Source of the DNA: Dendrophyllia cribrosa
Lineage: Eukaryota; Cnidaria; Anthozoa; Scleractinia; Dendrophylliidae
Reading direction: 5' to 3'
NCBI GenBank assembly: GCA_024195265.1
Contig: JAJLRJ010000001.1
Span: forward strand, 6,947,857 to 7,011,856
Length of the DNA stretch: 64,000 nucleotides
The stretch's first letter is position 1. Each line of letters starts with the position of its first letter. Below the pieces are notes generated by a model that did no database searches, had not been told where the DNA came from, and saw only the letters and a list, made by a program, of their open reading frames with translations. The position numbers were made by a program, and so were the translations under genes. This document shows, in pieces, positions 21,477 to 61,741 of the stretch.

Positions 21477-21482
21477 TTTATT
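21477..21482 (-). terminator. Poly(A) signal of the seven-domain thioredoxin gene
   Basis: On the - strand AATAAA occurs 36 nt after the TAA stop at 21518-21520. This implies a very short 3' UTR. Confidence 0.7.
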
Positions 21483-21517: not shown

Positions 21518-24500
21518 TTATAATTCGTCCTTTGGTCTTGTCATCGTCTTGACTTTATCTAAAGCTTTCTGCATGGACCTCACAACTATGAAAAGAAGAA
21601 ATCGAAATATGATATAAGATAGGTGATTTTAACTAATGAAACATGAAGGCTAGTGCAAGCTACACATACTTGATGTTAAAATTGTGCAAAATCATAAGGT
21701 TATAGAGCATGCATCATTCTGGAATTTAAGGCCAACGTTGAAATGAAGAGTTTGAAAGGGCAAACCAAACCATTCAATATATGGAGCGAGTTGCAAAAAA
21801 AATACGTCGTACTTAAGATATTAAAATAGTGGATTTGATTGGGCTGAACATCTACAAACATTCCTCGTTCTAAAAATATGAAAAGCGAAGTCATTATGGT
21901 CTTGGTATTTCTTCTAATTGGTCAAAAGAGGCGTGATTGCTATAACTAGTTAAAACACTAACGCAAAATCGATAAAAACATATAATTTTATACACTTTTC
22001 ATCGATTAGTTGTTTTTCACGGCAATACCTCACCTGCAGTTGCTTCCCAATAATAATACTTGCTTTCCTTATAAACTGTACCCGCATTAGAAATCTTCTC
22101 CATTACGTCACCTAAAGGATCTGATTTTCAAAATTTAAAGAATTGATTAGTTTATTTTGCAGCTTTAACCCCAGAGGGAGGAAAACCAAAATACCTAGGC
22201 CTGAAGAAAAACTCTCGGAGCAAGGACGAGAACCAAAAACAAATTCAACAAATATATGGCGTAAGTAAATTCTGAGAATTGAATCCAGGGGCCGTATTCA
22301 CGAAATCCTACCTAAGATATATCTTAAGATATAACTTAAGAGAAAATTTAGGAGCTTCCTAAGATATGTCCTAAGTGCTATTCACGAACGATATCTTATG
22401 ACCATCCTAAGGTAAGCGCAACTTAGCAGTCTCCTAAGTTTAATGGTCGCGGGCAGTTATCGATTAGTAAAAGTAAACCAATCAGAGACAGTTTATATAG
22501 CGCGATCTTATGAATAATAAGTTATGAAAATTACATGAATGAATATTTTGTATTATTTTGTATATAAATTGTTGTTGTAATCACAATGACGATACAATAA
22601 TCTTTATTTCATCTCGAATTTAAGATAGCAAAACCGTGATAATATCTTCGTTCATGGTCAGTAGCGAAAGCAACAAACAAATCCATCATCATTTTAATAG
22701 GGTCTACTTCGATATTTCTTGTACAAGGGCTTATTTTCACGAAAAACGGAAATATAACTCCGCAAAGAGAAAGAAATGTGGAACCCGTTAATGACACGAA
22801 GGCCTATATAAAACTAACCGTGTTGTTTGTGATATCACTAAAAATATATATTTAATTTTTCTTAGCAATATAATGCTTTAAAATAATATTGAAATTTAAA
22901 TTTAAGTCTGAATGCCGGAAAAGAACTGACAAAGACTGACTGTCTTTGTCAGTTCTTTTCCGGCATTCAGACTTAAATTTAAATTTCAATATTATCATTA
23001 ACCGTGAGTGCCACGCAGCAAAAAACATTTTAATTAATGCTTTAAAATGTTTATCTAATCGGTAACTATTGTGATACACAATAATCACGCTGAAAATCGA
23101 CGTAAAACTCGTTAACAATCGAATTTAGCCTCCGTCAAGACATGTTTTAATAAGTTAGGAGGTCAATTTTGACCTCCTAAATTTAGGAGAAAAATTAAGA
23201 CATATCTTAAGTTAGGAGGTCTTCGTGAATACCAGTTAAGACATGTCTTAAAAATTCAGGAGGTCCTAAGTTTAGAAGAAAAAATAAGACATGTCTTAAA
23301 ATAGGAGGTCTTCGTGAATACCAGTTAACTCCTAAGTTATATCTTAGGAGGCTCTTTGGACTTAGGATGCTTTCGTGAATACGGCCCCAGGGCCACATTG
23401 TGGGAGGCTGCACCATCCCTGCCCCTCCAACGTAAGAAAAATTATGAAATATCGTCATTGTTTCACTTAATGTCGTCACTCTTCTTGTGACAAAATACTC
23501 CGATTTTGTCTTCACGAAGCGAGGTTAATAAATTTGTCGTGCCTTGGGAGCTAAGCCGGGCGAATTCGAGCAAAAAATATATTTATATACTTGAAGATGT
23601 CGTGCAGTAGCCTGGCAACAGCGCAACAAAGCTTGAATGACGGTACTACTTCATGTAAGCCTATATAGGAGCATGGTAAACAAAGATGGCGGACGGTTAA
23701 TGGTACGCGAACCATCGAAAGGACCTTTTACCAACGTTTTTAGTTTCAAAGAAGACGAAGTGGAATGGCGAAAAGCCTCATACGCAAATCGAGACGCCAC
23801 CAAAGTTTCGACCCACGGTGCACCCTCCCCCGAGCTTCGCGAGATTCTGCGAGATACGTATTTCTAGTTTAGTTATCCCGCGGGGTCTCCGCGTTGCCAT
23901 TTTGAACAGAGAGGAGGCTCTGGGGACTAGGTTGTATACTTGCTATATAAATTAAAGCAACCTGAAATACCAACCCATGAACATGATTCTTGGAATATAA
24001 GCTCCATCGATGTCAAACTTCTTGGAGTGAAGATCAAATTCATCCTGCAAGAAAAGATATATATATATATATATAGAGGTTATTCAGCGTGAAGTTGTGT
24101 AATACGGCTGAGAAGGCTCAAAAAAATTAAAACTGACTAGTTTAGGCGAGAAAAAATAAAAACTGACGAGTAAAAATGCCAAGCCGTATTACACAACATT
24201 TCGCGGAATACATTTTTTACTATACGACACTAATCTTCTCCTAAAACTAAGTTTTTAAAACTGTTTTTCCTAGCGCGCGGTCAGAAGAGTGTAATAACGT
24301 GTCATATTTGCACTCGTTTTGATACATATTTGCACTCTAGAATTCCATGTCGAATAATAAAACAACATATTCAGCAGATTTCAGTTACACTTTGGCTGTA
24401 TTGATCGACTTGATCATCTAGCTTACATCACACTGTAAAACTTTGCATGATTGATTGATTTTAATAATATATTTTCATTACGGATGTCAGTATTTGTGTT

Positions 24501-26021: not shown

Positions 26022-26063
<42 letters not shown>

Positions 26064-29000
26064 ATGTGTAATACATCAATCAGTTTGAAGCACATTAACT
26101 AAGAGATCCATGCAGTCTGGGAAAAAGGAAGAGTCAGTGAAGATTGAACACCAATAGTCCTTTTTACAGTTGTGTGCTTGGTGACCTTGCCTTTGAGTGG
26201 AAGCGAGGCTGGAGGTGACCTTGCTTTGATACAGACCTTGGAGCTTTTCAGATGTAAATTTAGCTAGTTAGCATGAGAAAAGCATTATTAACATATGAAA
26301 GGCAGAAAGGTTTGTATCAAAGCAAGGTCACCTCCAGCCTCGCTTCCACTCAAAGGCAAGGTCACCAAGCACACAACTGTTAAAAAGACTATTGAATGCC
26401 GGTTTATAGTAACTTTAACTTGATGGCTTGATAGCTCAGTGGATAGGGTATTGCACCGGTATCGCAAGGTCATGGGTTCGAATCCCGTTCAAGCCTGAAT
26501 TTTTTTCAGGTTGCTTTTTCAACTGCTTTAGTTGAAAGCACACTGCGAGGATCACAAATCTCACTCATATCTATCCACAGTTCAAATATATGATTTCCAT
26601 ATATTCACATTCATATATATTCACTATCATCGGGTATATTACGAACTCACAATTGACCATCTATCCATGTGGCTTGATAGCTCAGTGGATAGAGCATTGC
26701 ACCGGTATCGCAAGGTCATGGGTTCGAATCCCAGGTTGCTTTTTCAACTGCTTAAGTTGAAAGCACACTGCGAGGATCACAAATCTCACTCAGTAACTCT
26801 TAACTTTGTCATTTTCGAAGTTTAGAAAGTTACAAGTTTTTCCATACATACCCTGACAAGCACTGCACCAGCTCTTGTGAATTAACAAAAATATTGGCTT
26901 CCAGCTGCAAAACGTAAAATGAGTGAATGATATTAGAATTTTGGATACAAACCTACTCATAACTTCACTTTGCACTTTTTTTTTCTCTCACAAGACCTCG
27001 TAGCTCAGCTGGTAGAAATTATTATCTCGCTGAAATAAATCCGATGGGCATCATTCAAAACGTTTTCAAGCTTTATTTTTGTTTGCATGAACGAATTTTC
27101 AAAATTGCGAGAATCATTTCCTTTTATCAAACTATGAACTTTTAGCAACTACAGTTACCCAATAGTTAGACTCTTTTTTTCCCTCAAGCATAGCCGACAA
27201 AGAGATTTACGCCGTGAGCGAACGTGAAAATCGGGCGACTTTCGCGCATGCGCACATTCACGCGTTTCGCTTGCTGCACTTTCTATTTCTGAGATAGCCC
27301 GTGAGCAGGCCTTGCCGGCGAGTTTTTCCTCGGCTCGCTTCGTTCTCCACCTTCTTTTCCGGGAGGCCTGTTCATAGGCTATTTCTGAGAGAAAGGAAAG
27401 TCTGCAGATGGTAGATTATCCAGAAGTGTGATTACCTGTTCTTCGCTTCAACATAAGCATCCTCAAGCTTCATCCAGTTTATTTCTTTACCTAATCCTGT
27501 AAGTGTGTAATGATGATGATTTAACTCTTAGCTTGCCGTTGTTAACGTATTCACCATGTTACCTACCATGCATGCGGTTATATAAAGTGGTTCTTGGTCC
27601 TCTTTGTACATCTCAAAAACAGCAATAGAGCGCTTGCATGTGACGTCACGGCGGTCATATTGGTCATATTCTCAAAACAATGAAATGGCGGCCATATTGG
27701 TGTCCTAAACAAATCCTATGGGACTTTACCTCTATTCTCATTTAAACATTTCCAATTGTTTTAGCACTCTAATATGGCCTAACTAACATATACCTTGCTA
27801 TTGTAGAGTTTTATTTTTTTGGTCTATTTAGCAAGCCAGTGTTTTCACAGTGTCTTTCTAATAATGTAAATTTTGCTGGTTTTTAGCGAATGTCTGAGTG
27901 TCAGATATATTTTAACCACGTTGAATTGTTAAATCAGTTAGATGCAGTCGCACGCTTTGGTTATGCTGCCTCCAGCAAGACTCCTGATCAAGTTAGATAA
28001 AAATTAATCCTTTCTACCAAAGTCAAACTTTAATTTAAGACAAATTCCATGTTTCATGTAGTAAAATACCGAAAAACATACGGAAATACAGGAACTGTAC
28101 CGCTAAAGAGCTTTCATTTGAATGGTCACATTGTACTGAATTTCATGCACAGATTTAAGGTTTGACTCACCTCTATCCAAAGAAGGTGGCGGCTTAATGA
28201 GTTTCTTCAAAGCTGTTTTCATCGTATGTATCACTTAAGAATAATAAAAAGACAAACGTCCATTATTCTATAACACAAACAGACTACAGGTCCATTGCTA
28301 CTGCCTTAGGGGAGGGGGGAGGAGGGAGAGGGGCTCCTAACGACTCGCTGGTACCCCTTTTATTTCCCGCTTGTTGGGGAGAGACAGTGTGGAATAAAAT
28401 TTCTTGTCTAAGAAAGCAACTCGACACACTGACCTTGCGATAAACGTCATTAATAATGCAGATAATACAAAGACTATCAGCTCGAACCATTAGGAACGTA
28501 TAGAAAAGCCAGGTTTGGAGAATTAATTTTGTTACTACTATCAGACAGAGAAAAAGGCTGATCATGTATACTTACGCTCCTCGTCGTCATTATAAAAGAA
28601 CTTGAACTTGATGTATTCAAGATCGTTGTTATGGAGATCCTTTTGTACTTTTCCTGCATGATCTGTGACAACAAATAATCAAATACGATAAGATTAAAAT
28701 AACATCCACTCCGATAAAACTCCTCTAAAGAATTACTCACCAAGAAAGAAGATTCGAGGAAAATATTTTCCATCAACGTCGAATTGTTCATCTTTCGGCT
28801 CCTCGTCGTCCTTAAGTAAAGTTGCAAAAAATTAACAAATAGGCCATGAATTACAAAAAGCCATTTCAGTGTGGCCTTGCGCGCACGCCCATTTAAAAGC
28901 AAACAACGGCTGAAAACAAATTTCGTTCTCTTGCCTCTACTTGCGTTTGGCGACCAAATGGTGGTAAACTCGTGCCTATTTGCGGACAAATTTAAGCTCG

Positions 29001-32000
29001 ATCAAAGTGAACGCAATTCAAGTCAACGCAAGCCACCGCAAGTACACACAAGTCCTGGCCAAACAGTTATAAGTTTCGTTGTCCAGTTTTGATTTCAGCG
29101 TAGGGTTTTCTGATTTTGTTTCTGTTTTTGTTAGCATTTGAAACACTTTTTATATTAAATGAGTTAAAAAAAACAGTTGTTATTGCTCCAGGTATATATA
29201 GCGCTTATACTTGAAAATTCGTGTAGTACCTCCACATTTATCATGACAAACTTCTTACTGAGCTCGGCAATCTCTTTTGATTCTGCGACGATTGGTTTCA
29301 GAGCTGAAAAGAGAAAAATAACAGTTACATATAAAGTGTCTTGCCTCACTTAGAAATTTCAAATGCTAAACAATTTACTTAGGCCCAGTTCAGAAAAACA
29401 TGATGAAAGGCCTGTATGGACGTTTATTTTTCTAATAACTTCAGCCTATTTATTCCTTAGTTACCTTTACATGCTCCACACCATGACTTGTGTATGATCA
29501 GCATCATAGGTTTTTCGCTGTGGAACGTTAACAATAGTGAGTTTAAAAAACATATCAGCATATCGTCTCGTTAACTCTTACGACTGACAAACCTGTGACC
29601 CTCAAAAAACAGATCGCGAATTGGATTATAAACGCTGGCTTTTGTTTTGGTGCTAGGGTGGATAGGTGTTTGTGTTAGATGGAACTTATCCTTATAGATG
29701 CGAATCCCTGAGTATAAAACTCCCACAACAAAAGAGGGTGTGACCCAAGTTCGCCGCTGCTAATTTTACACAGCCTGTATAATCTGCCGTTTGAATTTCT
29801 TTGCTGCGTATAAAACACTGGATTAATTGATTTGTTATTTATTCATACCTCTTCTTTGCTTCTTCCAGGCCTTTGTCCATGGTCATCCAGTCGATATTCT
29901 TACCAAATCCTGCAAGCAAAGCACCGTATGGAACCTCACATAAGCGGACACACTTGCGACAACGTTCTGGTGTCCGCTAAGGACAGTTATCCGCTTATGG
30001 GAGGCCAAAATGCAGTGTTTGTGTCTATCTTGATCACCACGACTTAATGTCCGCTTACAAGTGGGGCGCGCATATAGAAGTTGTCAGATAGCAACGAAGG
30101 ATAATAAGTCAAGGCGCAAGACATACCTTTATCTAATGCTGCTGGTTCAGGTAAAAGTTTCTTCATGGACTTGACGACTGGAAGCAAAGGAAAGTGTGAT
30201 TAACTACAGTTTAAAAAATGCATAACCAAAACAAAGTCAAACATTTGGAGGGTAATCACGATCTACAGTTATTATAATTATTCATCGATTAGTCCAAATT
30301 GATTTCCACTAGCTAAAGAGAATTAACACCTTGTTAAATTAATATGAAAAAAATCTTTGTAAAAAACGCATCAGGTAGTAACTGAATTTTAGCTTAGTTG
30401 ATGCGGAGAGTCGCGCAACCTCTGTGTGACCAGAAATAGCACAATAAATGGCTTATAGATTCCTGTCAATTCACGCAGTTGTGTCAGATTTAACAGGCAG
30501 ACAACCATGCACTCAAACAAGAAGAGTTTTTCATACTTACTTTCTTCAGGTGTCTTGTAGAAAAACTTCGTTTTATCAAGGTCAGTGTCTTCATTATCGA
30601 TATCCTTCTTCAATTCGCCATTGGAATCTGTCATTGTTCAGAGCAAAGATAAGTTACGAGCAAGAATAGTCGAACTAGAAGCGTAACGCTTTAGTAGGAA
30701 AATTTCCAAAACCTGTATCATGGATCCAAGATAGCTTTCATGTTTTTATCAAATTTTCATTATTTTGTAGAAGAAAACTGTATGTGCTCTATGTTTAAGC
30801 CACTTTTCTGACTCGCGTGTATATTATTTTTAATGATGGTTATCCAACTAGTTTAGCTTTTTAGTTATTTTGGGTAATCAGCTACTGTATCTATTTTTAA
30901 TTTATATATTATGTATACATCTTTGTAACTTTACAGTACGAATAAACGTTGTTGTTGTTGTTGTGTTTAATTTACCTAAGAAAACAATTCTTGGAACATA
31001 GGATCCATCCACGTCGTATCGTCCATCCTTTGGTATTTCATCGTCCTATAAGAAACAGATAACAGCATTTGAAATAATAATGAAGATACTAAAGCTGCGT
31101 TCACATTAAAGCCGAAACATGTTTAGAGTAAACATGTTTCAACTAAACATGTTTCGCGTAAACGTGTTTGTTCTGGCATTGTTCACATCAGATGTCGGTT
31201 TCAAACACGTTTCATGCATGGTTGAATCATTTATGCTGTTTTGCGATGCGGTACGCTTAAAACCATTCTCATTCAGTTTTGCGGCAATGTTCTCCCATAT
31301 GTTTTGTTTCCTTCCCATTACCGCTAATTGTCGTTGTATTTCCTCGTCTGCCCATACTTCGACCAGACATTTTGCTTCATAAACGCTCCAATTTTGGTTC
31401 TTTTGCACACTCATGTCTTCTCTGCATCCATCCGCCATTTTGAATGTGTTCAGTCTGATCATAATTGAAACAACCTCGTGAGGTAGTTTCAATCATGATC
31501 AGACTAATCATGTTTCAATCATGATTCGCGCAATGCACTGCCTGATGTGAACACTTTTTATGATGAAACATGTTTCATTCGTGATCAGACTAATCATGTT
31601 TCGACCTAGTGTGAACACAGCTTAAGATTCCTGACGTGAAATAGCTATCAAAATGAATTATTTACTTAATCTGATAACAGTCTGTATGTCTGTCTTACTG
31701 ATTGACTGACTGGCCGTGGTATTCCGACGAAATGAACGTGACATTCGGCCATGACCGAAATGCTTCTCTTGCCTAGCATTAAGAGCTTTGGGGTGCCAGA
31801 TTTATATTTGCCTTGCAAACACTAGTATTTCTTAAAGCACACGTTTTCTATAACTACCACCCTTTATAAGCTTTTGTTACATGTAGATAAAAGACAAAAA
31901 TGTGTAGGAACTTTCACATGTATGAACGTTAATGCCAAAACTGAGATTACATGTTTATGTCCCGCCACTTATCTGTAACTGTATTCAAAACATAAGCCTT

Positions 32001-38000: not shown

Positions 38001-41000
38001 TCTGTCAAGCTTTTTTCTACTCTTGGGTGAGAGCTAGCAATTGCAATCACCCTTAGAAAAGAAAAATTGAGAACAAAAGAAAAATTGTAAAATTGTGATA
38101 ATAAATTTTTCCGCTCCTTTTCAGCACAATCGGTTAAACGGATAAACATGACTTGTTATTTACCATTATCAGAGACTGCTTTGGATTGGTCCTCCATCTT
38201 CAGTGCTTTTTTCATTGCTATGACCACTGTTTGACGAAAAATAAAAGAGCAGCCATACAATCGTTTATTCATCTCTTTATTTATTCATCTATCTACTTTT
38301 ATTTATCGCGTTCGAAGAACGCAATTCTAATTTCGTGTTGGTTGTCCTGTGGTTTATGTGCAGTAAAATTTGAGATTTTTTGGTAGACGGTCTTCCAAAT
38401 GGCCGCCCCTATTGTTTTTTTCAGGGGCTCATTTCCGCCAGAAGTTCCTTCGAACGCGTCTCCATAATCTCCGATTACTGCTAGTTTATTTACTTATTTA
38501 CTTATCGCAGTTATCGCGTTCGAAGAACGCAATCCTAATTTCGTGTTGGTTGTCCTGTGGTTTATGTGCAGTAAAATTTGAGATTTTTTGGTGGCCGGTC
38601 TTCCAAATGGCCGCCCCTATTGGATTTTTTTCAGGGGCTCATTTCCGCCGAAAATTCCTTCGAACGCGTCTCCATAATCTGTGATTGCTGCCAGTTTATT
38701 TACTTATCATAGTTATTTGATACATGTATAGTTATGCAATATATTATATGACAACTCACATTCTTCTCCGTTGTTGTAATAATATTTCACGTGCTTGTGT
38801 TTTGTTCCCTCGTTCCATAATCCCTTCTCAACATTTCCTTTTGAATCTGAGATAAGATAAGTGGAGTGTTAAAAGACAAATCAAGAGAGTATGTTTCGAA
38901 TCATACACCAATTAGAGGCATAAGAAATTCAGTTTCCCATGTAAGTCAACATTAGAAGTGATCTTGTCTAGCTTCTGTAGAGTGGCCGCAGAAACTCGTG
39001 ATGAGTTTAGATGATTTGAGGTTTAGAGCTCTTATTGCACATCCGGTGAATTAATGAAATTCAATCGCACACAACTGATCTTCTTTGCTCACGTCGGTTC
39101 TCGGCGTAACGACTTCGTTTTAAGCTATCTCTTAAGTTTTGTAGTTTACTGGATATGTCAAAATGCTTTACTAGACACATACTCCCTGTATATCTCACTA
39201 TTATACGAGAATAAAATCGTTCTCGATGTCTTAGCCTAGGACCACCTAATGGTTCTATAATATCATTGGTTTGGTCACCATTGGATGAGCTGAACATCCC
39301 TGGCTTCCGTTCTGACCAAAGGCAGGCGTTTGGAAATCAAAAAGGTTTCCATGATAGCAGCTACTTGTTTCTACTTTCCGGGTCCTTACCTAAAAAGAAT
39401 ATCCTTGGTACGTATTTGCCATCCACGTCAAACTGGTCTTCTTTTGGTTCGTCATCGTCTCCCGTGTTCACCATCACGAATTTCTTGCTGAGTTCAGCAA
39501 ATTCCTTGTGACTGGCCAACTTGGGTTTTAAGACTATTTTTGTGTATCAAAACATAATTTCGTTAGTTCAAGACGTGTCTTTATATATCTTCAGAAACTA
39601 TCATAACGGTGACTTTTTATCCTTGTTGTTACACGAAACAATTTATAACGATAACGCAACATGTGTTATATCGCTATGTTATGCTGATTGCTAACGCAAA
39701 TTCCTTGACTCTGAAGATGACTTCCACTCAACAGACTCAAGTTGTCTAAGCATCAGCGATTAAGCAGATTTAGCAAAGACAACGCGACAGCGCGCGGAAT
39801 AGTCTGGACACAAGTTCATTTCAACCTCCTCTGGCGTTGTCATTACTAAATCTGCATCGTGTCTTACTCAGACTATCATATGAAGACAGATTGCAGAAGC
39901 TTTAAGGTTCAAACGAAATCAACCACGTTAGTAAATGTCGCAAGAAATGATCTCGGGTAACATCGCCTAGGGTGACATTATATCATGTCATTTGTACCTT
40001 TGCATGAGCTGCACCAAGATTTGTGAATGATCAAGAGCATCTTCTTGTTACTATGGAGACAAACGTCAAAGAAAGAATACTTGAGTTACAAAAGTGTCAA
40101 ATACAATCACAAAAACTGTTTCTGTCTTTGGTTATAGTCGGCGTCATATCTTGAGCAAAAATAATATCGTCTACAAATAAGGTGCAGATTATTTTCTCTT
40201 AACTCGTGGATAATCATGTCGACGATCTGTCCAAACGGAGACTGAGTGGACTCACTGCCATACCCTCGTTGCTGCCTTAGGCTGCATTTTTTGGGAAAAT
40301 AAGAATTCGGATTCTTGAATCCAAAAAAGGATTTTGCGGTTTTTTTTTTTACTAAAATCCAAAAACGGATCATGAATCCGTTGAATCCATACTTCGGTGA
40401 GATTTTCAGATCAAATCTCAATCCGGATTTTTAGATTTGTGATCTGATAGTTTTTTGAATGGATTCGATAAAAGTGCATCTGACAAGCGGTCATTCGTGC
40501 AAATTTACTCGTTCCGTTCGCTGTTTTGTTTCTTCCACGATTTCATATCACGGACAATTGCGTATATTTTGAAAACAATTTGTCGAGCAGACTGATAAAC
40601 ACAAGCGAGTCAAAATAGGTTCATTTGCATAAAAACGTTTTTTTTTTTTACTTTAAATGATTTTAGGATTTTTCGTTTCTTTGATCATGAAAAATCCATA
40701 TGATCTGAGATCACAAGGCCAATTTCGGATTCTCCCAAAAAAAACGCAGTCTCATTCTTTCTGCATTCGCTCTTAAATTCGCGTCTGCATTTAACGTCAG
40801 CTAGTACGTTACCCCGGAAACGAGAATAGCCCGCCGCACAGAAGATTGTTGTCGCTCCCGGCGCACCTCGAGATTCTGTGCGACGAGTGATTTCCGCGCG
40901 TCGCCTTAAGCGTTCAAAAAAAACGGTGAACAGCTGTACTAATGGTGAATGGCGGTTGCACATCTGACAGCAGGGTACGGTAGGGTAGGTTTTAGGGGGG

Positions 41001-44000
41001 GGGGTGGGAGTAGGTTAGTAGGTAGGGTAGAGTGGAGTAGGGTAGGTTAGAACGATAGGGTGGAGGATGAAGGGCTTGTCAAATGCGTAAGTTCTTTTAT
41101 TTTGAGCTATCCAGATATAGTGACAGTACAAGCCCTTTTACCGTGGAAGTTCCACGGGCCCTGCTAGCGATATCATAACGCCTTTAAGGCAACAAACCTG
41201 TTTTTAGCTTCCTTTAATCCCTTCTCGTACGATACCCAGTTGATATGATCACCAAGTCCTGTTTAAAATAAATGTGCATCAAGTGAGTCGCTCAATTCCG
41301 AGACTGGTGTAAAATGCAGCACGTCGTGCAATTTTATTTCCACCACAGTTAAGGCGTTTGAAACAGAAGAGAAAAAAGAAAGAAGGCCTTTTACAGTACC
41401 TCTTGACAAATCTTCTTTGGTATCTTTTGGTTTCCACCAAGGATCTTTCTCTTTTGCCTCTGCTTGGTCATCTTCTTTCTTCTCTTCTGATTTTTCTGCA
41501 GAAAACCAAGAAAACCTCTTGTAGCCGGTGAACTTTTTTTTTTCAGAAATCATAAAAAATGTAAATAATATTCGCCCCATGTAGTTACAGTACTATGTCA
41601 TACCTATAAATCCAGTGTCCTTCATTTTGAGAGCCCTCTTCATCGCTGCTATTACTAAGGATGAAAACACGAAATTTGTTAAATATTATTCGCCACTTTA
41701 GAAACGAGAAGGAAACTGGGCCGAGTGAACTTTCGCAACGACTTCTGAGATCGTTACAGGGGACGCTTCTTTTGTCTCTGTCCCCAGTAACAGTACCAGA
41801 AGTCGTTGCGAAAGTTCACTCGGCCCAGTTACCTTCTCGTTTCTAAAGTGGAGAATTGCCGTGGAGTTCCGACAGTAGCGGTCCCCGTTCCTTTCGGAAA
41901 GGCCTAAGGGGCCGCAACTTTCGGGTAGCCGCTACTTCAGGGTGGGACGTTACTTTAGGGAATTACCAGAAAGGTCCTAGAGTGAAAACCAAAACTAAAG
42001 TAATTACTCTGAACAATCACAGAACTCGCATACAATCCGATAAACCAATCAGAACTCGAACCAAATATATGTCGGCGGCGCCAAGCGCGGGAAAACGCAT
42101 GCGAGCAAATCACGATTTGTTTTGGTTTTATTTCTGATTGGTCGAGAAAGTGGCGCGAGATTTTTTAGCCAATCACAAAGCGTAGCAATGCAAAACCAAA
42201 GCAATTGCGAAATTACTTTCGACACTCAATTGAAAAGCGCTCTAATATAAAATTAACGTTACTTTTGGGGACAGCTTCTTTTGCGACTCTACGGTATTTC
42301 GAGGCAATAGTCTCTGGTTTATAGCTGCCAAAACATAATTTGCTCTGTAGTCAAACCATCCGTTAGAAATCCGTCCTATGTTATTATTTAAATTCATATT
42401 CATTTTTACTAAGAGATCAGTGTGTGACATACATTCTTGTGGAGTACTGTAGTAATATTTAACATGTGGATGTTTGGTGCCTTCATTCCAAATCTCGTCA
42501 ATGACTTTCCCTTCAGGGTCTATACAACAAGAAACAAGCAAATAATTATTACAAACTATTAATTCAACTAAAAACTATTACTTCACTGAACTACAAACTA
42601 TTACTTCAACTACCAACAACAACAGTCCTGTTACAGTTATATGGTGGTAAATGCCGTGTTTCTTAAGCTGGGCCTGAACCCAGTAGGCATCCATTCGAAT
42701 AAAAGCGATTGGGCAATATTTATTTTATAAAATGCTAAAAGAAATGCGCACGCTATGATTGGTCAGATGGAGTTCATTATATCTCGATAAAACACGCACC
42801 ATACGTCACGTACGTGCTTTACCGAGTTATAATGCACACAGCCTAACTCACCAAGCACGTGGGAATTTTAAAAAGCACAAAAAAGTAACCTCTATTTCAG
42901 AACTTACTCATGAATAAAACTCTTGGAATGTATTCTCCATCCACTATAAACTGGCTTCCCTTTGGTTCCTCTTCATCCTCTGTGTTAACCATCACGAAGT
43001 GTCTACTCATTTTTGCAAACTCCTTTGAATCGGCAAGTTTGGGCTTCAGTGCTGTAGAAAATCGTTACATTGCAAGAATAAGGACTGGTCTTTGATCAAA
43101 TTAAAGTTATGTGATCAACTGCATTACACATGCGAAAAGGGTTTGATTGTGCATCCGATCACAGACTGGACTTTTTTCCCCTCTCCCCGCCGCGCGTCTC
43201 GCCTTTCTCGCGTGGGGTGATTTTCACGCGCGCTCGCGTTTCACTCGCTCTACTATCCCTGAGGAAAAAAGAGGGACTACTCGTAGTCTAATCACAGACG
43301 GAAGCCGGATAAAGATGAAGTGAGTGAATTTCAGTTTTCAAACCGTTCACTGATTCAAAGTCTGTTTCTTTGCTTTATTGTTGTACCTGTTCGGTATATA
43401 TTCGAACAAGATTTTGTGATTCTCAATCGTGTTTTAATACATTTGTATCATTTTAACGTGCGCTCTAATAAGGACTAATTCATTCTGTAGGGTAAAGTAA
43501 GAGATTTACGAAATTTTAACTCATATTTTCACATCAGATGAGCTACAAAAACACCTCGATGCGGCGCCTTTGAGATTCATTGCATTCTCGCTCGCCCCCA
43601 GAGCTCCACGGTGCTTTTTTTAAATGGTAACTCGTTTCAATGGCTGACCAAACGAAACGAGGGCTCTGGTGACGAATATGGGTTTATTGGTCAAATATCA
43701 AACAGAAGAAGTTCTTCAAAATGTTTGACCAATGCGTTTGAAGGCAGTTTACACCATCAAACAGTTGAATCAAAGTATAATTTGATCAAAGAAACTTTGA
43801 TAGTGTAACTACCGGCCTTTACATTACTTTATTCTATGATTATGAATCGTAATCATAATACAGTCGATTATAAAGAGAGTGTCACCTTTGCATGAGCCAC
43901 ACCATGTTTTGTGAATGAGAAGTAACATCAGTTTATCACTGTAAGATAAAAGTAAACTCTGTTAGTTTATTGTATTCTCTACATAATTACCGTTGGGATG

Positions 44001-45914
44001 ATTTGGTTTACAAAGCGTAAACGTACGTTTCTGAGATGATACTACTTTGAAACGTATCTTTACCTGCTTGAATGTGTCACAAAAATTAAAGATAAAAATC
44101 AACTATCGACGCGTCAGTATCAGTTTTAAGACAAAAACATGCCTTAAAAGGTAAGAACTTGAGATGTTCTGATGAAGACTTTTGTTTGGTTATAAGACAT
44201 CAAGAGACTATGATCTAGTCTCTTGAAAACATATACAAATTAGTTTTCTTTTAAAGTGCCCCTGTGATCAATTTTTTTATTTTCATTTTTTTACATTTTC
44301 GTGTACAATTAGACTTTCTTACTCATCTTGCCAAATTTCAATTCATTACGAATACCAGAAGTCATTTTATTTTAACATTTATTTCCGAGAATTTACGGCC
44401 GCGATTAATCAACCTTGTTCCAAGGCTTGGTTGCGAATGGGAGAAAGTGACGTCAAAGACTCAAACATACCTCACGGGTTGAAATTATAATAACAATAAG
44501 CATAGAAAATTGCTTTTCGCGTGATTTTCAATACTTATTGTTATTATAATTTCAACCCGTGAGGTATGTTTGAGTCTTTGACGTCATTTTCTCCCATTCG
44601 CAACAAGGAACAAGGTTGATTAATGGCGGCTGTAAATTCTCGGAAATAAATGTTAACATAAAATGACTTCTGATGTTCGTAATGAATTGAAATTTGGCAA
44701 GATGAGTAAGAAAGTCTAATTGTACACAAAAATGTAAAAAAATGAAAATCAAAAATTTGATCACAGGGGCACTTTAAGACAGTTTGTGTGTGTTTACCTC
44801 TTTTTTATTTGTTCTAATCCTTCCTCAAAAGTGACCCAGTTGATGCTGTCACCAAACCCTGTGTTAACAAACGTAAATGATCGTGTAACCAGGTCCTGGT
44901 TAATTAAAGCAACTTAAGATTAAGTGGGATTTTCTGCACATCCCTTTGTTAAAGTCACGGTATAAAAACCGGTCTGAATAGGGTTGAATTGTACGTTAGT
45001 GCGTTGAGTGAGTACTACTAGAAACCAAACGGGATCTACATTACCCTTCGAACGTGCTTACCCGAGAACACAACTGCATGGGATCTACGTTCCGCTGATT
45101 TTATAATTGTAATATAAAAAAAGTATTTCGAACAATTATCAGGGCTTACCTCTAGCAAGAAAGTTGTTTTTTATGACCTCTGGTTCTTCTTCAATTTCCT
45201 TTGAGACGTCGCTACCATCGATTTTCAGGACTGACTTCATGCTATCAACGACTGTAAACAAGAGAGGTCTTCAATAAATCGCAAAACGTAAGCTGGTGGA
45301 TAAAATTTTTGTTTTCATGTTCTAATTACGAATGTTCTCCTTACTTTCAGAGGTTTTTCCGTAGTAGTATTTGGTATCTTTGTGCTTTCCGTGTTTATTA
45401 TAAACATCGTCCATAACCTCACCATCAGACGCTGTAGAATAAAAATAAAAAGTGGCTTTAACTTCCTTCCCATCAGGCATTTAATAAAACAATCGTCGCA
45501 GTAGCAATAAGTAAAACGTGTTTGTGTTGAATATGCCGCACTTTATGACTGAAAACGTGCAGCAATAAAAACCTTCAAAGCAATTCAGATTCAGTGATTT
45601 CGCGCGCTTTTTACGATAAAAATATGCTCCTAACTAAGAGAAAACAGTCTTAGTGAAAATAAGCTGCTTTTCGTCAATTTATACAAAGATATTTTAACTC
45701 ATTGTCAGAGATTGATATGAATAATTTTATGCTGGATATTTCAATTTCTTGGTTCTAATGCATGTAAAATACCATCTAAAAACTGCTCTGATTGTAGTAT
45801 TGACTTACACAGAAACAAAATCCTGGGAATGTATCTTCCGTCTGGGCGGTATTTTTCGTCTTTGGGTTCTTCGTCGTCCTAGAGGTAAAGTAAACACAAG
45901 TTATAATATTGGTT

Positions 45915-46009
<95 letters not shown>

Positions 46010-48480
46010 TTCGTCTTCGTCTTCGTCTTCGTCTTCGTCTTCGTCGTCGTCGTCGTCGTCGTCGTCTTCGTCTTCGTCTTCGTCTTCGTCTTCGTCTTCG
46101 TCTTCGTCTTCGTCTTCGTCTTCGTCTTCGTCTTCGTCTTCGTCTTCGTCGTCGTCGTCGTCGTCTTCGTCTTCAGTCTTCAGTCTTCCGTCTTCATCTT
46201 CGTCATCATCATCATCATTATCATTATCGTCATCATCATCAACAACATCATCATTATTCTCATCGTCATCTCAATCATGATATTTATGATTATCCTTAAT
46301 GTAAACATGACAATTTAAAAATTGTTTTAACTTTTCATTTTTGTATCTTCTTACAAGTAAGAGGAATTTTATTACTATACCTCCACATTCACCATCACAA
46401 GGTCTTTACTGAGGTCTGCTATTTCCTGTGACTCGGCAAATACGGGTTTTAAAGCTGAAAACGTCAATAACAAGTGTTATCATATGACTCGTACAGCCTT
46501 GCGAACCTTTTCTTTGCAAAACCATTGATGAAAGTCCCGTATGAGGACTGTACTTATTTGCGTGAGCGGGGCTGGAGAAAGGCGTACGGCCCTACTACAA
46601 AAGCGGATGGCCTTGCGCGTTAAAATTTCAAGTAATTTTGTCTCCAAATTGGTCATATGATAATATACTAATTGACTAAGTTAGGTCGGGCCGGACGGGA
46701 AAATATTTGGCTCTCAATCATGGCGCATGGACCTCGCTGCGCTCGGTCCATGCGCCATAATCTCGAGCCAAATATTTTCCCATCCCGCCCTCCCACTTAG
46801 TCAATAAGTACATCATATCAGCTAATTTGATTCTAATGTTCCCTCTTTCAGCATTCATGCTTAAAAAACAAAAATCAGAATTAAAACTCCACCTTTACAT
46901 GCCCCACACCAAGTCTTGTGAATGAGCAGCATGAGTGGTTTATTGCTATGAAAAGAGGAAATTGAAAGAATATGTTAAAATGGTACTTACGGTATAGAAA
47001 AAGTTTGAGCGGTGCTTGCTCAATTTACAGCAATCTCAGATTGCTTGAAATTTGGCCGTATCTACATTAGGGCTACCGTCAAAACTTCACGTTCTATGCT
47101 GGTGCTCAATTAAATATTTTACATGCACGTTATAATAATATATGATCATGAGGTACTGTAAAATAAATCAGCAGTTAAAAATTTATCTGACAGTTGAAAA
47201 TCTTTTCATTTTATATAGCTATTAGCTAATTAAGTTATCCATTGAGGCCCGTTTAAGATAAGTTTTAGTATGATGTGCTTGCAGATGCAAGCAATTCTCT
47301 ACCCTGTTGAAAAGTAGATAATTTATATTTTGTTTATTTTACTTTTCTCCCGGTCCGACAGTGTCCATTAATTCCATTGTTTGTTATCTAGTAATTCTTT
47401 GACTTATTTGTTAATATTGGTGGCTGTGTGATGTCATGTAAAATTAACTGAAGTGCAAATCCGGTACTGTCGATAACTAGAAATATGACTGAACAAGTAT
47501 AAAAAAAGAGAAAATGATGGACCGTTGCAACCTGCCATTAATTTGGCAGTTGGGCGTCAAGACTAAAATCTCGCAAGCGATGGGTAAGGGTCGGGTAATT
47601 AATGGTTGAGGATAAATAAAATTTTATTTAGTACAAGACAGTGCCATGTTATTTAGGAAGAGCTAAATTCTAAATTCTTTATATTGCCTCGCCAGAAATT
47701 GAAATACATTTACTTTACTCTTGCTTGCAAGTTATCAGTTGTGTTCTTAGACGGCCGGTTATGGCTTTATTACGATTTAATAACACGTGACATCGGAGCA
47801 ACCGACCAGAACAAATGAACATATTGCACGCCAAGATTCACTTCTCCTTTTCTCTCCATTCTCGTTTTACATTAGTTTACTACAAGTAACAACAAAACTC
47901 CGGATTTTATCAAAACGAAAGAAAAAAATGAGCTCATCAAGTTGGACATAGTTATGAATTGTATCGTAAGGTAGTAGCGATACAGATGTCGCAATAGTGA
48001 ACGAAAAGTAAAATTATATATCTTCACTGGATGAGCTAAAAAATCCTCTAGAAAACTCGAAGCATGTTTGATGAAAACAATCCAATTTTCAAGTCAATAA
48101 ACTCGAAATAATCATTGACTTGGTAAGCGTTTCAAATGGCTATCACTAACGTGTTAATATTTTCCGTTCAAAACTTGGCATTGTTTTGATTCGCTGTTGG
48201 TTTTTAGTGTTCGCTGCTTTAAATACACTGATATAAGTAGCTGTTACCTCTTTTTTGCTTCTTTTAAACCATCGTCGAACGTTTTCCATTCGAACTTCTC
48301 TCCCCAACCTGAGAATTTCAAAACATTAAAAATATGAACTTTAAAGCTGCGTTCAAGTATTAAATAATCTTCTTTTTAACCAAATCATTGACACATACCT
48401 CGATCGAGGGGATCCTCTGGTTCACAAAGAACAGATATAGCTAAATTAAATAGAACTATAAACGCAACGTGAGTCTTCAT
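21518..48480 (-). CDS. ER-retained protein with seven tandem TXNDC12/ERp18-type thioredoxin domains
   Basis: Assembled from 42 exons, 3057 nt, 1018 residues; all junctions are GT-AG and keep frame. Exons in transcript order (high to low): 48480-48399, 48308-48248, 46945-46893, 46454-46381, 45878-45809, 45431-45345, 45251-45150, 44858-44798, 43938-43886, 43051-42908, 42519-42433, 41654-41604, 41495-41400, 41258-41198, 40050-39998, 39533-39390, 38846-38760, 38226-38164, 37522-37462, 36370-36318, 35545-35472, 34220-34151, 33847-33758, 33131-33069, 32600-32540, 32421-32369, 32182-32109, 31045-30976, 30627-30541, 30177-30127, 29909-29849, 29517-29465, 29303-29230, 28810-28741, 28662-28576, 28233-28171, 27496-27436, 26904-26852, 25528-25455, 24044-23975, 22120-22034, 21585-21518. 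A signal peptide (1 to about 19) leads in and KDEL ends the protein, so an ER lumen location is expected. Each domain has the TXNDC12 hallmarks: KPxMLxIHKxWCxxC, then LKP, E(I/F)AxLSK, FVMVN, an acidic DDEEPKDE stretch, YxPRI(L/F)F with the cis-proline, and KYYY. TXNDC12 and AGR proteins are single-domain ER thiol oxidoreductases or chaperones. The function of a seven-fold array is unknown; multivalent disulfide exchange or client binding is inference. Confidence 0.92.
22289..23387. mobile_element. Foldback DNA element with GGGCCGTATTCACGAA ends
   Basis: Inverted ends GGGCCGTATTCACGAA at both sides, with CAG outside each end (22286-22288 and 23388-23390). The right half has several subterminal repeats built on TAAGACATGTCTTAA and AGGAGGTCTTCGTGAATACC. 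No transposase. Lies in intron 40 of the thioredoxin gene and contains a perfect palindrome. Confidence 0.75.
22883..22995. repeat. Perfect palindrome, 54-bp arms, 5-nt centre
   Basis: Positions 22883-22936 are exactly complementary to 22942-22995. The lack of any mismatch suggests a recent origin or gene conversion. Confidence 0.95.
24057..24074. repeat. (AT)n microsatellite
   Basis: About nine AT units, 12 nt upstream of exon 40 on the - strand, inside or next to its polypyrimidine region. Confidence 0.85.
24691..24857. mobile_element. MULE-like MITE copy 1 with 9-bp duplication
   Basis: Inverted ends TAGCCTGTGAACAGGC and GCCTGTTCACAGGCTA. The 9-bp duplication TGGAAATTT is perfect at 24682-24690 and 24858-24866. 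A 9-bp duplication is the hallmark of Mutator-type elements. Non-coding. Lies in intron 39 of the thioredoxin gene. Confidence 0.88.
26026..26062. repeat. (GT)n microsatellite
   Basis: About 18 GT units in intron 38 of the thioredoxin gene. Confidence 0.95.
26166..26380. repeat. Foldback repeat with 72-nt arms
   Basis: 26166-26237 and 26309-26380 are near-perfect complements (ACAGTTGTGTGCTTGGTGAC at the outer end). The loop is 71 nt. No target duplication identified. In intron 38. Confidence 0.8.
26425..26567 (+). repeat. tRNA-derived SINE copy 1 with a complete tRNA-Thr(GGT)-like head
   Basis: The first 72 nt (26425-26496) fold as a full cloverleaf: acceptor GGCTTGA/TCAAGCC, box A TAGCTCAGTGG, anticodon loop CCGGTAT (anticodon GGT), box B GGTTCGAATCC, then a T run. 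After it comes a body, CAGGTTGCTTTTTCAACTGC to AAATCTCACTCA, which also follows the second copy at 26671. The shared non-tRNA body and the rare GGT anticodon argue for a SINE rather than a working tRNA gene, though copy 1 alone could pass as one. It sits in intron 38, antisense to the host gene. Confidence 0.75.
26671..26792 (+). repeat. tRNA-derived SINE copy 2, 3' acceptor deleted
   Basis: Same head as copy 1 (box A, GGT anticodon loop, box B), with a better D stem (GCTC/GAGC). About 20 nt covering the 3' acceptor strand and T run are missing, so box B runs directly into the shared body. Not a functional tRNA. Confidence 0.78.
27295..27381. mobile_element. MULE-like MITE copy 2 with 9-bp duplication
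   Basis: Ends TAGCCCGTGAGCAGGCC and GGCCTGTTCATAGGCTA, the same family as the copy at 24691. The 9-bp duplication TTTCTGAGA is perfect at 27286-27294 and 27382-27390. Only 87 bp long. In intron 37. Confidence 0.87.
28171..29909 (-). other. Domain R6 cassette (residues 746-881), active site CGAC
   Basis: Exons 31-36 (61, 53, 74, 70, 87, 63 nt). Starts GFGKNIDW, with C779 and C782 in WCGAC, then [38 protein letters not shown] and [10 protein letters not shown]. The most compact cassette in the genome (1.7 kb), with no large repeat in its introns. Confidence 0.9.
30780..30964 (+). mobile_element. Non-LTR retrotransposon 3' tail with (GTT)n end
   Basis: A + strand tail ending AATAAACGTTGTTGTTGTTG, i.e. 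a polyadenylation-like motif followed by a GTT microsatellite, as at the 3' ends of some invertebrate LINE or SINE families. The 5' edge is not determined. It ends 12 nt from the donor-side edge of exon 28. Confidence 0.45.
31093..31622 (-). mobile_element. Harbinger-like element A carrying a Myb/SANT ORF
   Basis: Ends AGCTGCGTTCACA and TGTGAACACAGCT, with TAA at 31090-31092 and 31623-31625. On the - strand an open frame (31139-31492) includes [20 protein letters not shown] and [19 protein letters not shown], which resemble the Myb/SANT-like DNA-binding proteins of PIF/Harbinger elements. No nuclease, so non-autonomous. In intron 27 of the thioredoxin gene. A relative lies at 50746-51230. Confidence 0.8.
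33518..33700 (-). mobile_element. CR1/L2-like LINE 3' fragment with (TGAA)n-type tail
   Basis: On the + strand, (ATTC)n at 33518-33543 is followed by TTTATTTGCC. Read on the - strand this is a 3' end with AATAAA and a TGAA-type tail, as in CR1/L2 LINEs. No reverse transcriptase is present. In intron 23. Confidence 0.45.
34394..34942. mobile_element. MITE with AGAGCAGTTTTCAATT ends, interrupted
   Basis: The left end AGAGCAGTTTTCAATTAAGTG is mirrored by CAATTGAAAACTGCTCT at the right. The interior includes CCAATCA-type motifs and the TTGGCGCCGCCGACAT segment, shared with a second copy at 41980-42244. A different element is inserted near its left end. In intron 21. Confidence 0.75.
34429..34689. 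mobile_element. Nested MITE with CGTATTTTCTC ends
   Basis: Ends CGTATTTTCTCGATTAAACG and CGTTTAATTGAGAAAATACG, with TAC outside each end (34426-34428 and 34690-34692). Comparison with the uninterrupted relative at 42200 shows it was inserted into the outer element. Confidence 0.78.
37007..37428. repeat. Long foldback repeat beside exon 19
   Basis: Arms 37007-37137 and 37297-37428 are near-perfect complements. A second palindrome lies in the centre (37190-37262, GCGTTTCCAGTGAG and its complement). The right edge is about 34 nt from the donor of exon 19. In intron 19. Confidence 0.8.
38164..41258 (-). other. Domain R3 cassette (residues 341-476), active site CSSC
   Basis: Exons 14-18 (61, 53, 144, 87, 63 nt). 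Starts GLGDHINW, with C374 and C377 in WCSSC, then [33 protein letters not shown] and [10 protein letters not shown]. Shares the fused 144-nt exon and the WNEGTKH segment with R2, so R2 and R3 look like a recent pair. Exon 14 ends in the weak donor GTTTGT. Confidence 0.9.
38305..38715. repeat. Tandem duplication of about 208 bp
   Basis: ATCGCGTTCGAAGAACGCAA starts at 38305 and again at 38513. The two units are about 95% identical by eye and continue through GGCCGCCCCTATTG to CTGC(T/C)AGTTTATTTAC. In intron 17. Confidence 0.85.
41693..41851. mobile_element. Foldback MITE, 159 bp
   Basis: Arms of about 68 nt (CCACTTTAGAAACGAGAAGG at the left end) with a short centre built on AGGGGACGCTTC. No target duplication is clear. 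In intron 11, next to another element. Confidence 0.8.
41980..42244. mobile_element. Second copy of the AGAGC...TTTTCAATT MITE family
   Basis: Right end CACTCAATTGAAAAGCGCTCT matches the end of the element at 34394-34942. The interior shares GGCGGCGCCAAGCGCGGGAA and GATTGGTCGAGAAAGTGGCG with it in the opposite orientation. The left end is degraded. In intron 11. Confidence 0.65.
44255..44773. mobile_element. 519-bp foldback element with TTAA duplication
   Basis: Arms of about 240 nt, starting AGTGCCCCTGTGATCAA and closing TTGATCACAGGGGCACT. TTAA flanks both ends (44251-44254 and 44774-44777), as for piggyBac or Kolobok superfamilies. No transposase. In intron 8; its edge is about 20 nt from the donor of exon 8. 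Confidence 0.85.
45915..46270. repeat. Compound GTCATC / GTCTTC microsatellite
   Basis: About 90 nt of GTCATC units, then about 170 nt of GTCTTC and GTC units, then CATCAT-rich decay. It produces long Ser-rich and Val/Ile/Phe-rich artificial open frames on the + strand. On the - strand it reads GATGAC/GAAGAC, similar to the Asp/Glu codons that begin the adjacent exon 5. Confidence 0.95.
46671..46805. repeat. Foldback MITE-like element, 135 bp
   Basis: ATTGACTAAG at the left is mirrored by CTTAGTCAAT at the right. Arms of about 60 nt include ATGGCGCATGGACC. In intron 3 of the thioredoxin gene. Confidence 0.75.
48399..48480 (-). other. Signal-peptide exon of the seven-domain gene
   Basis: Exon 1 encodes [19 protein letters not shown], a typical hydrophobic signal peptide, then EPEDPLDR, and stops one base into the next codon (phase 1). 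The ATG at 48478-48480 was chosen because it opens directly into this signal and the next exon joins in frame. Phase 1 matches the phase at both ends of every domain cassette. Confidence 0.88.

Positions 48481-49987: not shown

Positions 49988-61741
<11,754 letters not shown>

What the first reader, a model, noticed from the sequence alone, without database searches (positions are those of the whole stretch)
21518..48480. A seven-domain, KDEL-ending TXNDC12-type thioredoxin protein
Seen directly: 42 exons join in frame into 1018 codons, from a signal peptide through seven copies of a TXNDC12/ERp18/AGR-like domain to KDEL-stop. Known: TXNDC12 and the AGR proteins are single-domain ER proteins; multi-domain ER thioredoxin proteins such as PDI are built from a different domain subclass. 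I know of no described protein with seven TXNDC12 units. Inference: a multivalent ER oxidoreductase or folding scaffold, possibly serving heavy secretion such as mucus, skeletal matrix or venom-capsule proteins.
Basis: partly seen in the sequence, partly recalled or inferred. Interest (0 to 1): 0.92.

Follow-up and report, generated by a model that had tools for sequence, protein, structure and literature searches.

The report
Seven-unit ER thioredoxin of cnidarians
A coral-type genome carries a single gene whose protein strings together seven copies of a small protein-folding enzyme that other animals seem to use one at a time; relatives with six or seven copies occur in corals, anemones, hydroids and jellyfish, and we found no description of them.

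Summary
On the minus strand 42 exons (41 of 41 introns GT-AG) join into one 1018-codon frame: signal peptide, seven TXNDC12/ERp18-type units, KDEL-stop. An unnamed 3,207-nt contig, so evidently a spliced transcript, holds a 1018-aa frame that aligns without gaps at 93.8%. A protein search gave 24 multi-unit relatives, all cnidarian by name or by nearest relative: seven units in all eight coral-type hits and most anthozoans, six in all eight medusozoan-type hits and one octocoral-like contig. Unit trees match four positions in order across the anthozoan-medusozoan split, so the array probably predates it. Cnidarians also keep a single-domain TXNDC12. One unit (unit 5 here) is C-x-x-S in nearly every array, the kind of change that makes ERp18 a substrate trap (PMC8944254). 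A published Acropora divergence island, read as PDIA5 plus TXNDC12, very probably lies in this gene. Most likely it is an ER-retained oxidoreductase with six dithiol sites and one client-trapping site. Activity, location, clients and cell type are untested.

The parts
21518..48480 (-). Whole gene (CDS span), 42 exons, 1018 aa, seven TXNDC12-type units, C-terminus TRPKDEL
   Evidence: full-length spliced relatives
48399..48480 (-). Exon 1: start codon and hydrophobic N-terminal signal peptide ([19 protein letters not shown]...)
   Evidence: signal peptide judged by eye, no predictor run
45150..48308 (-). Unit 1 (exons 2-7), active site CGAC
41604..44858 (-). Unit 2 (exons 8-12), CGSC; exon 10 (42908-43051, 144 nt) replaces a 74+70 nt pair
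41400..41495 (-). Exon 13: extra charged linker exon (phase 1-1) between units 2 and 3
   Evidence: low-confidence linker in the model of the relative P0001 (residues 308-335)
38164..41258 (-). Unit 3 (exons 14-18), CSSC; exon 16 (39390-39533) is the same 144-nt type
33069..37522 (-). Unit 4 (exons 19-24), CGAC
30127..32600 (-). Unit 5 (exons 25-30), monothiol CQIS active site
   Evidence: closer to TXNDC12 than to AGR2/AGR3
32369..32421 (-). Exon 26: HKSWCQIS, the C-x-x-S site (candidate substrate trap)
   Evidence: first Cys kept in 25 of 25 array sequences (window + 24); fourth position Ser 22, Thr 1, Ala 1, Cys 1
28171..29909 (-). Unit 6 (exons 31-36), CGAC
21518..27496 (-). Unit 7 (exons 37-42), CSAC, ending in KDEL and stop
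21477..21482 (-). AATAAA polyadenylation-type signal 35 nt after the stop
19433..20587 (-). Downstream neighbour (not part of the gene), an alpha/beta-hydrolase ORF, ABHD14-like by eye; in Acropora the annotated neighbour is ABHD14B
   Evidence: PMC6505131 section 16

Best explanation
It is one gene for a soluble, ER-retained thiol-disulfide oxidoreductase made of seven TXNDC12 (ERp18) units in a flexible row. Six units carry C-x-x-C sites with small spacers like that of TXNDC12 (CGAC, CGSC, CSSC, CSAC) and would exchange disulfides with clients; beyond the signal peptide the chain has no other cysteine. Unit 5 keeps only the first, attacking cysteine (CQIS) and would hold a client as a mixed disulfide instead of releasing it. 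The row would raise local site density on clients rich in cysteine or repeats, and KDEL would bring the protein and a trapped client back to the ER. The array was built by tandem duplication of a phase-1 exon set from a TXNDC12-type gene, probably before anthozoans and medusozoans split and probably as six units, with a later copy of unit 2 giving seven. Shown here: gene structure, single open frame, unit class, sorting signals by sequence, conservation among cnidarians, position-specific CxxS. Inferred: catalysis, trapping, avidity, ER residence, clients, order of duplications.
For: Gene and frame. Spliced full-length relatives: six unnamed contigs of 3,142-3,651 nt each holding a 1013-1022 aa seven-unit frame (P0001, P0002, P0003, P0005, P0007, P0008). 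Unit class: TXNDC12 best by sequence for the whole protein, best stretch unit 1 (148 bits vs 78 for AGR2), and for the CxxS unit 5 (124 vs 57 bits); 1sen overlays one unit of the P0001 model at target TM 0.92, rmsd 1.0. Active sites: 133 of 133 readable sites outside the CxxS unit are CxxC (of 163 units, 25 are the CxxS unit, 4 had no readable site, and one reading in a 36-residue fragment of P0016 was dropped). CxxS unit: first Cys 25 of 25. The 25 sequences are not independent: P0011/P0013 and P0016/P0020 are pairs of models from one species each. Chain from residue 20 on: 13 Cys, all in the seven sites. cis-Pro-type motif DGxYxP[RK] in 158 of 163 units. KDEL, RDEL or KEEL at the end of 24 of 25 (P0020 is a truncated model). 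Old array: in a tree of units from 12 of the 25 arrays plus 13 single-domain proteins, Med2 groups with Anth2+3 (95/92), Med3 with Anth4 (91/58, weak), Med5 with Anth6 (96/89), Med6 with Anth7 (96/86), in the same order. Copy of unit 2: units 2 and 3 are the closest pair here (59%) and share the 144-nt exon. Mechanistic parallel: ERp18 and PDIR lacking the second Cys of CXXC form mixed disulfides with ATF6alpha and serve as substrate traps (PMC8944254 section 9); ERp44 (CRFS) and AGR2 (CPHS) form mixed disulfides with clients (PMC12384036 passages).
Against: No activity, localisation, expression or client was measured. Units 1 and 5 are not resolved across the anthozoan-medusozoan split: medusozoan unit 1 falls beside anthozoan unit 5, and medusozoan unit 4 near both, on long branches; holding Med4 with Anth5, or Med1 with Anth1, is not rejected (p-AU 0.434 and 0.136; log-likelihood 1.0 and 12.7 lower), which is no proof. 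Hexacoral unit 1 sits among single-domain TXNDC12 (98/92), so a separate origin of unit 1 is possible, though the single-domain proteins alone as a clade is not rejected either (p 0.494). The octocoral-like units 2 and 3 group with each other (100/99), and the octocoral-like P0015 has six units with both ends present, so the seventh unit may have arisen twice, been lost, or been homogenised. The trap site reads C in P0019 and A in P0021. A Nematostella RefSeq isoform (P0010) starts at the end of unit 1 without the signal peptide; a shorter start is not excluded. The AlphaFold model has pTM 0.31, so nothing is known of unit packing.
Confidence: 0.6

Rival explanations
1. A regulator of the unfolded-protein response rather than a general folding enzyme: units bind and reduce the luminal parts of stress sensors, as ERp18 does for ATF6alpha and AGR2 for IRE1beta, and the seven units give graded sensing of cysteine-rich client load.
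For: ERp18 reduces the ATF6alpha dimer and slows its export (PMC8944254 section 9); AGR2 bound to IRE1beta is a solved structure (9i3u, 9i3f titles) and a mucin-AGR2-IRE1beta axis is proposed (PMC12384036 passages). Unit 5 shares the CxxS state of AGR2/AGR3.
Against: At least six cnidarian species listed also have a single-domain TXNDC12 that could do this; unit 5 is not an AGR by sequence; no interface residues were tested.
Confidence: 0.2
2. A mainly non-catalytic chaperone, matrix scaffold or calcium-buffering protein of the ER, in which the thioredoxin fold serves binding (calsequestrin-like).
For: Chain from residue 20 rich in D/E (185) and K (146), net charge about -18, pI 5.8; Foldseek lists calsequestrins among the multi-domain matches.
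Against: Six of seven units keep a full CxxC, and 133 of 133 readable sites outside the CxxS unit are CxxC across arrays, which binding alone would not preserve. The calsequestrin matches have low TM-scores (query TM 0.10-0.17 in the rows shown).
Confidence: 0.1
3. Several neighbouring genes or a mis-joined cluster of TXNDC12 copies, as annotated in Acropora digitifera.
For: A. digitifera has separate models (PDIA5-like P0149, TXNDC12-like P0028); unit-sized exon sets could in principle be separate genes.
Against: Only one signal-peptide exon and one stop in the frame; six separate 3.1-3.7-kb contigs carry a whole seven-unit frame; the A. digitifera models are 97.2% and 99.4% identical to two stretches of one such frame, P0005.
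Confidence: 0.03
4. A secreted or cell-surface protein (as reported for AGR2 and newt anterior gradient protein) with an extracellular role in mucus, skeleton or capsule.
For: Signal peptide; secreted AGR relatives are reported (titles and abstract starts of PMC4839744 and PMC7519367 in the listing).
Against: 24 of 25 array sequences end in KDEL, RDEL or KEEL; one N-glycosylation sequon only.
Confidence: 0.07

Closest known systems
TXNDC12 / ERp18 / ERp19 (PDIA16)
   Same: Same domain class by sequence for the units tested (1 and 5), CGAC-type sites, xDEL end
   Different: TXNDC12 is one domain of 172 aa ending EDEL (PMC12781119 table); here seven units, 1018 aa, one of them CxxS
AGR2 and AGR3 (PDIA17, PDIA18)
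   Same: CxxS state (CPHS, CQYS) resembles unit 5 (CQIS); same wider family
   Different: Single domain; unit 5 scores 124 bits to TXNDC12 and 57/52 to AGR2/AGR3, so the CxxS looks convergent
ERp44 (PDIA10)
   Same: Monothiol CRFS site with RDEL end, works by mixed disulfides; several octocoral- and medusozoan-type arrays read CQFS, CEFS, CSFS or CMFS
   Different: a-b-b' layout, other thioredoxin class, one redox domain
ERdj5 (PDIA19)
   Same: Row of thioredoxin domains with four CxxC sites and KDEL; first Foldseek entry by E-value, but TM only 0.12-0.17
   Different: Six thioredoxin-like domains, 793 aa; J domain (recalled)
ERp90 / TXNDC16
   Same: Seven thioredoxin-like domains listed
   Different: No canonical CxxC (PMC12781119 table)
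Acropora digitifera LOC107334364 'PDIA5-like' and LOC107334366 / LOC107334421 'TXNDC12-like'
   Same: Very probably fragments of the orthologous gene; order along the scaffold and ABHD14B neighbour fit
   Different: Annotated as separate genes, one as PDIA5, and called 'either a gene or a pseudo-gene' (PMC6505131 section 16)

Membership tests
TXNDC12 domain family (unit level) | Sequence closest to TXNDC12 rather than AGR or PDI | tested here: met
   Whole protein (best stretch unit 1) and unit 5 against PDB sequences; seven Thioredoxin_7 stretches. The other five units were not run singly against PDB.
TXNDC12 domain family (unit level) | CxxC redox site | tested here: not met
   Met in units 1-4, 6, 7; not in unit 5 (CQIS).
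TXNDC12 (protein level) | Single-domain protein of about 170 aa | tested here: not met
   Seven units, 1018 aa; so this is not a TXNDC12 in layout
TXNDC12 (protein level) | Signal peptide plus xDEL retrieval end | tested here: met
   Sequence shows both; the signal peptide was judged by eye
Protein disulfide isomerase family, broad sense | ER-resident thioredoxin-fold protein acting on thiols | not testable with these tools
   Fold and signals fit (on the relative P0001); activity and location not measured
AGR2/AGR3 | Unit 5 closest to AGR | tested here: not met
   124 bits TXNDC12, 57 AGR2, 52 AGR3
PDIA5 (name used for the Acropora fragment) | b-a-a-a layout with CSMC, CGHC, CPHC sites (PMC12781119 table) | tested here: not met
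   P0149 is 97.2% identical over 467 residues to residues 49-515 of the seven-unit frame P0005, and is three to four TXNDC12-type units by profile

The most novel reading that the evidence does not exclude
A cnidarian-specific, roughly phylum-old disulfide machine: a fixed row of TXNDC12 units in which one position has been kept since before anthozoans and medusozoans parted as a built-in substrate trap, made to fold and hold back cysteine-rich secretory polymers such as nematocyst-wall or mucus proteins until they are fit for export. It would be the ER counterpart of the phylum's hallmark secretory products.
Probability: 0.2. Interest if true: 0.85.

Novelty: new variant of a known kind. Interest (0 to 1): 0.62.

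Why it matters
Of the 24 PDI-family members tabulated in PMC12781119 none has more than four CxxC sites; this protein has six plus a monothiol site, all in one TXNDC12-type row, and it occurs in hexacorals, octocorals, hydrozoans and scyphozoan-type animals but in no named non-cnidarian protein that the three searches returned. The fixed place of the CxxS unit makes a direct test possible of whether evolution turned one copy of an oxidoreductase into a client trap, the trick biochemists use at the bench. It also bears on a published case: the second-ranked divergence island between Acropora palmata and A. cervicornis, read as PDIA5 plus TXNDC12 models, 'either a gene or a pseudo-gene', very probably lies in this one gene, so that result can be re-read.

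Tried and rejected
Separate genes: rejected by full-length spliced contigs; an intronless retrocopy behind one of the six contigs is not excluded but would itself derive from such a transcript. Unit 5 as an AGR-derived unit: rejected by scores. Arrays outside Cnidaria: searched with the whole protein (26 hits), one unit (544 hits, only the best 120 listed and seen) and three units (58 hits). Unit counts by my own profile on all fetched proteins: no named non-cnidarian protein had two full units; the catfish P0027 repeats part of one unit, and the unnamed P0195 is one unit in two pieces. Limits: searches scored only the 7,989 and 7,994 candidates sharing most words, so distant arrays could be missed. 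Structure of the array: the model of the relative P0001 is confident per unit (mean pLDDT 79.6) but not in layout (pTM 0.31); Foldseek matches to ERdj5, PDI and calsequestrin are low-TM fold matches and were not used as evidence. Own genome: the genome search 'own' was tried four times and never answered, so the single-domain TXNDC12 of this very genome was not seen. Codon-level selection tests were not run: no DNA of relatives was at hand. Expression: no listing showed cell-type data for this gene; supplements could not be searched, and the lists were cut to the best by title and abstract, so a paper naming TXNDC12 in passing could be missed. A first motif scan misread some sites of distant units (for example in P0014 and P0021); one search replaced it.

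Full report
What is in the sequence. The gene lies on the minus strand, 48480 to 21518. rebuilt it from the DNA: 42 exons, 3057 nt, 1018 codons and a stop. Exon ends, high to low coordinate: 48480-48399, 48308-48248, 46945-46893, 46454-46381, 45878-45809, 45431-45345, 45251-45150, 44858-44798, 43938-43886, 43051-42908, 42519-42433, 41654-41604, 41495-41400, 41258-41198, 40050-39998, 39533-39390, 38846-38760, 38226-38164, 37522-37462, 36370-36318, 35545-35472, 34220-34151, 33847-33758, 33131-33069, 32600-32540, 32421-32369, 32182-32109, 31045-30976, 30627-30541, 30177-30127, 29909-29849, 29517-29465, 29303-29230, 28810-28741, 28662-28576, 28233-28171, 27496-27436, 26904-26852, 25528-25455, 24044-23975, 22120-22034, 21585-21518. 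All 41 introns are GT..AG.

Why it is not chance. Exon lengths and phases repeat unit by unit: 61 and 53 nt in 7 of 7 units; 74 and 70 nt in 5 of 7, and 144 nt (their exact sum) in units 2 and 3. All seven units start in phase 1 and units 1-6 end in phase 1, so whole units can be copied in frame. Pfam finds seven Thioredoxin_7 stretches (E 9.2e-128). The closest relative in the protein collection, P0001, comes from a contig of 3,207 nt and has exactly 1018 residues; the two align end to end without a gap, 955 of 1018 identical, 40 of 41 junction residues identical. A 3,057-nt open frame on a 3.2-kb contig leaves no room for introns, so it is a spliced transcript (or, less likely, a copy of one); its species is not given. 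Five more such contigs (P0002, P0003, P0005, P0007, P0008; 3,142-3,651 nt) carry seven-unit frames of 1013-1022 aa.

What the units are. The whole protein scores 148 bits against human TXNDC12, best stretch unit 1, and 78 against AGR2; unit 5, the odd one, 124 against 57. Units are 39-59% identical to each other. The sites are CGAC, CGSC, CSSC, CGAC, CQIS, CGAC, CSAC. From residue 20 on the protein has 13 cysteines, all in these sites. An AlphaFold model of P0001 made with 22 relatives gives seven thioredoxin folds with good local confidence (mean pLDDT 79.6) and no trusted layout (pTM 0.31; linkers at residues 155-167 and 308-335 below 50). One unit overlays the TXNDC12 crystal structure 1sen at rmsd 1.0 and target TM 0.92.

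Who has it. Of 26 hits to the whole protein, 24 are multi-unit. Eleven have names: Porites lutea, Desmophyllum pertusum, Nematostella vectensis, Exaiptasia diaphana (two models), Paramuricea clavata, Xenia (two models), Hydra vulgaris, Clytia hemisphaerica, and a 'Seg...GoldUCD' entry that I recall as Aurelia. The 13 without a species name fall next to these by BLAST (P0005 by its match to Acropora). Unit counts: the eight coral-type hits P0001-P0008 and the window have seven; the eight medusozoan-type hits (P0014, P0017-P0019, P0021-P0024) have six; among octocoral-type hits P0009 and P0012 have seven, P0015 six with both ends present, and the Xenia models five, one with a fragment of a sixth; Exaiptasia P0011 has seven with unit 4 incomplete, P0013 is a broken model of the same; Nematostella P0010 has six because the isoform starts after unit 1. 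The other two hits are nematode proteins with one unit. A three-unit search (58 hits) added Rhopilema, Actinostola, more Xenia and unnamed fragments; its named non-cnidarian hits had one unit each. A one-unit search (544 hits, best 120 listed) shows single-domain TXNDC12 across animals, including Stylophora, Desmophyllum, Montipora, Nematostella, Exaiptasia and Actinia, so at least these cnidarians or their close kin have both forms; the list also holds the Acropora array fragment P0028.

History. A careful tree was made from 90 units: 77 from 12 of the 25 arrays and 13 single-domain proteins, 130 columns. Medusozoan unit 2 groups with anthozoan units 2+3 (95/92), unit 3 with 4 (91/58, weak), unit 5 with 6 (96/89), unit 6 with 7 (96/86): same order, one extra unit in anthozoans. 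Units 2 and 3 of the window share the 144-nt exon and are its closest pair, which fits a copy of one unit. So a six-unit array before the anthozoan-medusozoan split is the simplest reading. The weak spots are units 1 and 5 (long branches; the tests neither support nor reject the expected pairings), hexacoral unit 1, which sits among single-domain proteins (98/92), and the octocoral-like units 2 and 3, which group with each other (100/99) while P0015 has only one of them.

The CxxS unit. In 25 of 25 array sequences (window plus 24, two species twice) the corresponding unit keeps the first cysteine; the fourth position is Ser in 22, Thr in P0009, Ala in P0021 and Cys in P0019. It is the third unit from the end in 24 of 25; in the truncated model P0020 it is the last. 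Of the other 138 units, 133 readable sites are all CxxC; four units had no readable site (one in P0011, three in P0013, models with missing exons) and one reading in a 36-residue fragment of P0016 was dropped. ERp18 lacking its second cysteine forms mixed disulfides with ATF6alpha and serves as a substrate trap (PMC8944254, abstract and section 9 read). ERp44 (CRFS) and AGR2 (CPHS) form mixed disulfides with clients (PMC12384036, passages read). Unit 5 is therefore best read as a natural trap inside an oxidoreductase row. This step is inference.

A published locus explained. PMC6505131 (section 16 read; passages) ranks second among divergence islands between Acropora palmata and A. cervicornis a 15-kb stretch with models named PDIA5-like (LOC107334364, 'three weakly conserved tandem repeats', missing splice signals) and TXNDC12-like (LOC107334366), with another TXNDC12 model (LOC107334421) beside it and ABHD14B next in the figure legend, and says 'either a gene or a pseudo-gene'. 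Two A. digitifera proteins from contigs of the same length (997,381 bp) match one full seven-unit frame, P0005: 'PDIA5-like' P0149 at 97.2% over 467 residues (positions 49-515), 'TXNDC12-like' P0028 at 99.4% over 154 residues (positions 866-1019). In the window the gene is followed on the same strand by an alpha/beta-hydrolase ORF that looks like ABHD14.

How it most likely works. See Best explanation: an ER-retained, multi-site thiol oxidoreductase with one trapping unit. Next likely: a stress-sensor regulator; less likely: a non-catalytic matrix protein or a secreted factor. Clients are unknown; cysteine-rich secretory proteins of cnidarians are a guess from biology.

Known or new. PMC12781119 (section 7, part 1 of 2 read; passages) tabulates 24 family members: TXNDC12 is single-domain; the most CxxC sites is four (ERdj5); ERp90 has seven thioredoxin-like domains without CxxC. 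The listings of ten literature searches (one search found no paper) showed no account of a TXNDC12 array; the library lacks most subscription journals, and supplements could not be searched. So the sequences are in databases and the architecture seems undescribed: a new variant of a known kind.

Noticed in passing
P0149 and P0028 (Acropora digitifera) versus P0005: The A. digitifera 'PDIA5-like' and 'TXNDC12-like' models match two stretches of one seven-unit frame; a published divergence island rests on such models.
   Followed up: partly
P0153 (unnamed jgi contig, 1170 nt): An FKBP-type isomerase C-terminal piece (27 bits) runs in frame into two medusozoan-like units; possible fusion of a prolyl isomerase with the array, or a chimeric contig.
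   Followed up: partly
window 26425-26496 (+), inside intron 38: tRNA-Thr (GGT) gene call by ARAGORN and Rfam (50.9 bits); a second similar stretch about 250 bp away, seen by eye, suggests a tRNA-derived repeat.
   Followed up: partly
window 31142-31492 (-), inside intron 27: Myb/SANT-like domain ORF of 117 aa (35 bits), resembling transposon accessory genes (recalled).
   Followed up: partly
window about 45900-46280: Long GAC/GAA/GAT simple repeat in intron 4, close upstream of exon 5; it gives apparent ORFs of over 100 codons on both strands.
   Followed up: no
window 1297-2049 (+): HMG-box ORF (87 bits), SOX-like by eye.
   Followed up: partly
window 56589-56897 (+): HSP70-family exon (117.5 bits), looks like mitochondrial HSPA9 by eye.
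   Followed up: partly
P0157 (Stylophora pistillata): Database protein named UDP-N-acetylglucosamine transporter contains a TXNDC12 unit in its second half (residues 320-440 of 540); probably a mis-joined neighbour gene.
   Followed up: no
medusozoan-type arrays such as P0019, P0021-P0024: Long charged or glutamine-rich spacers between some units and charged tails before the xDEL end, by eye longer than in the coral-type arrays.
   Followed up: no
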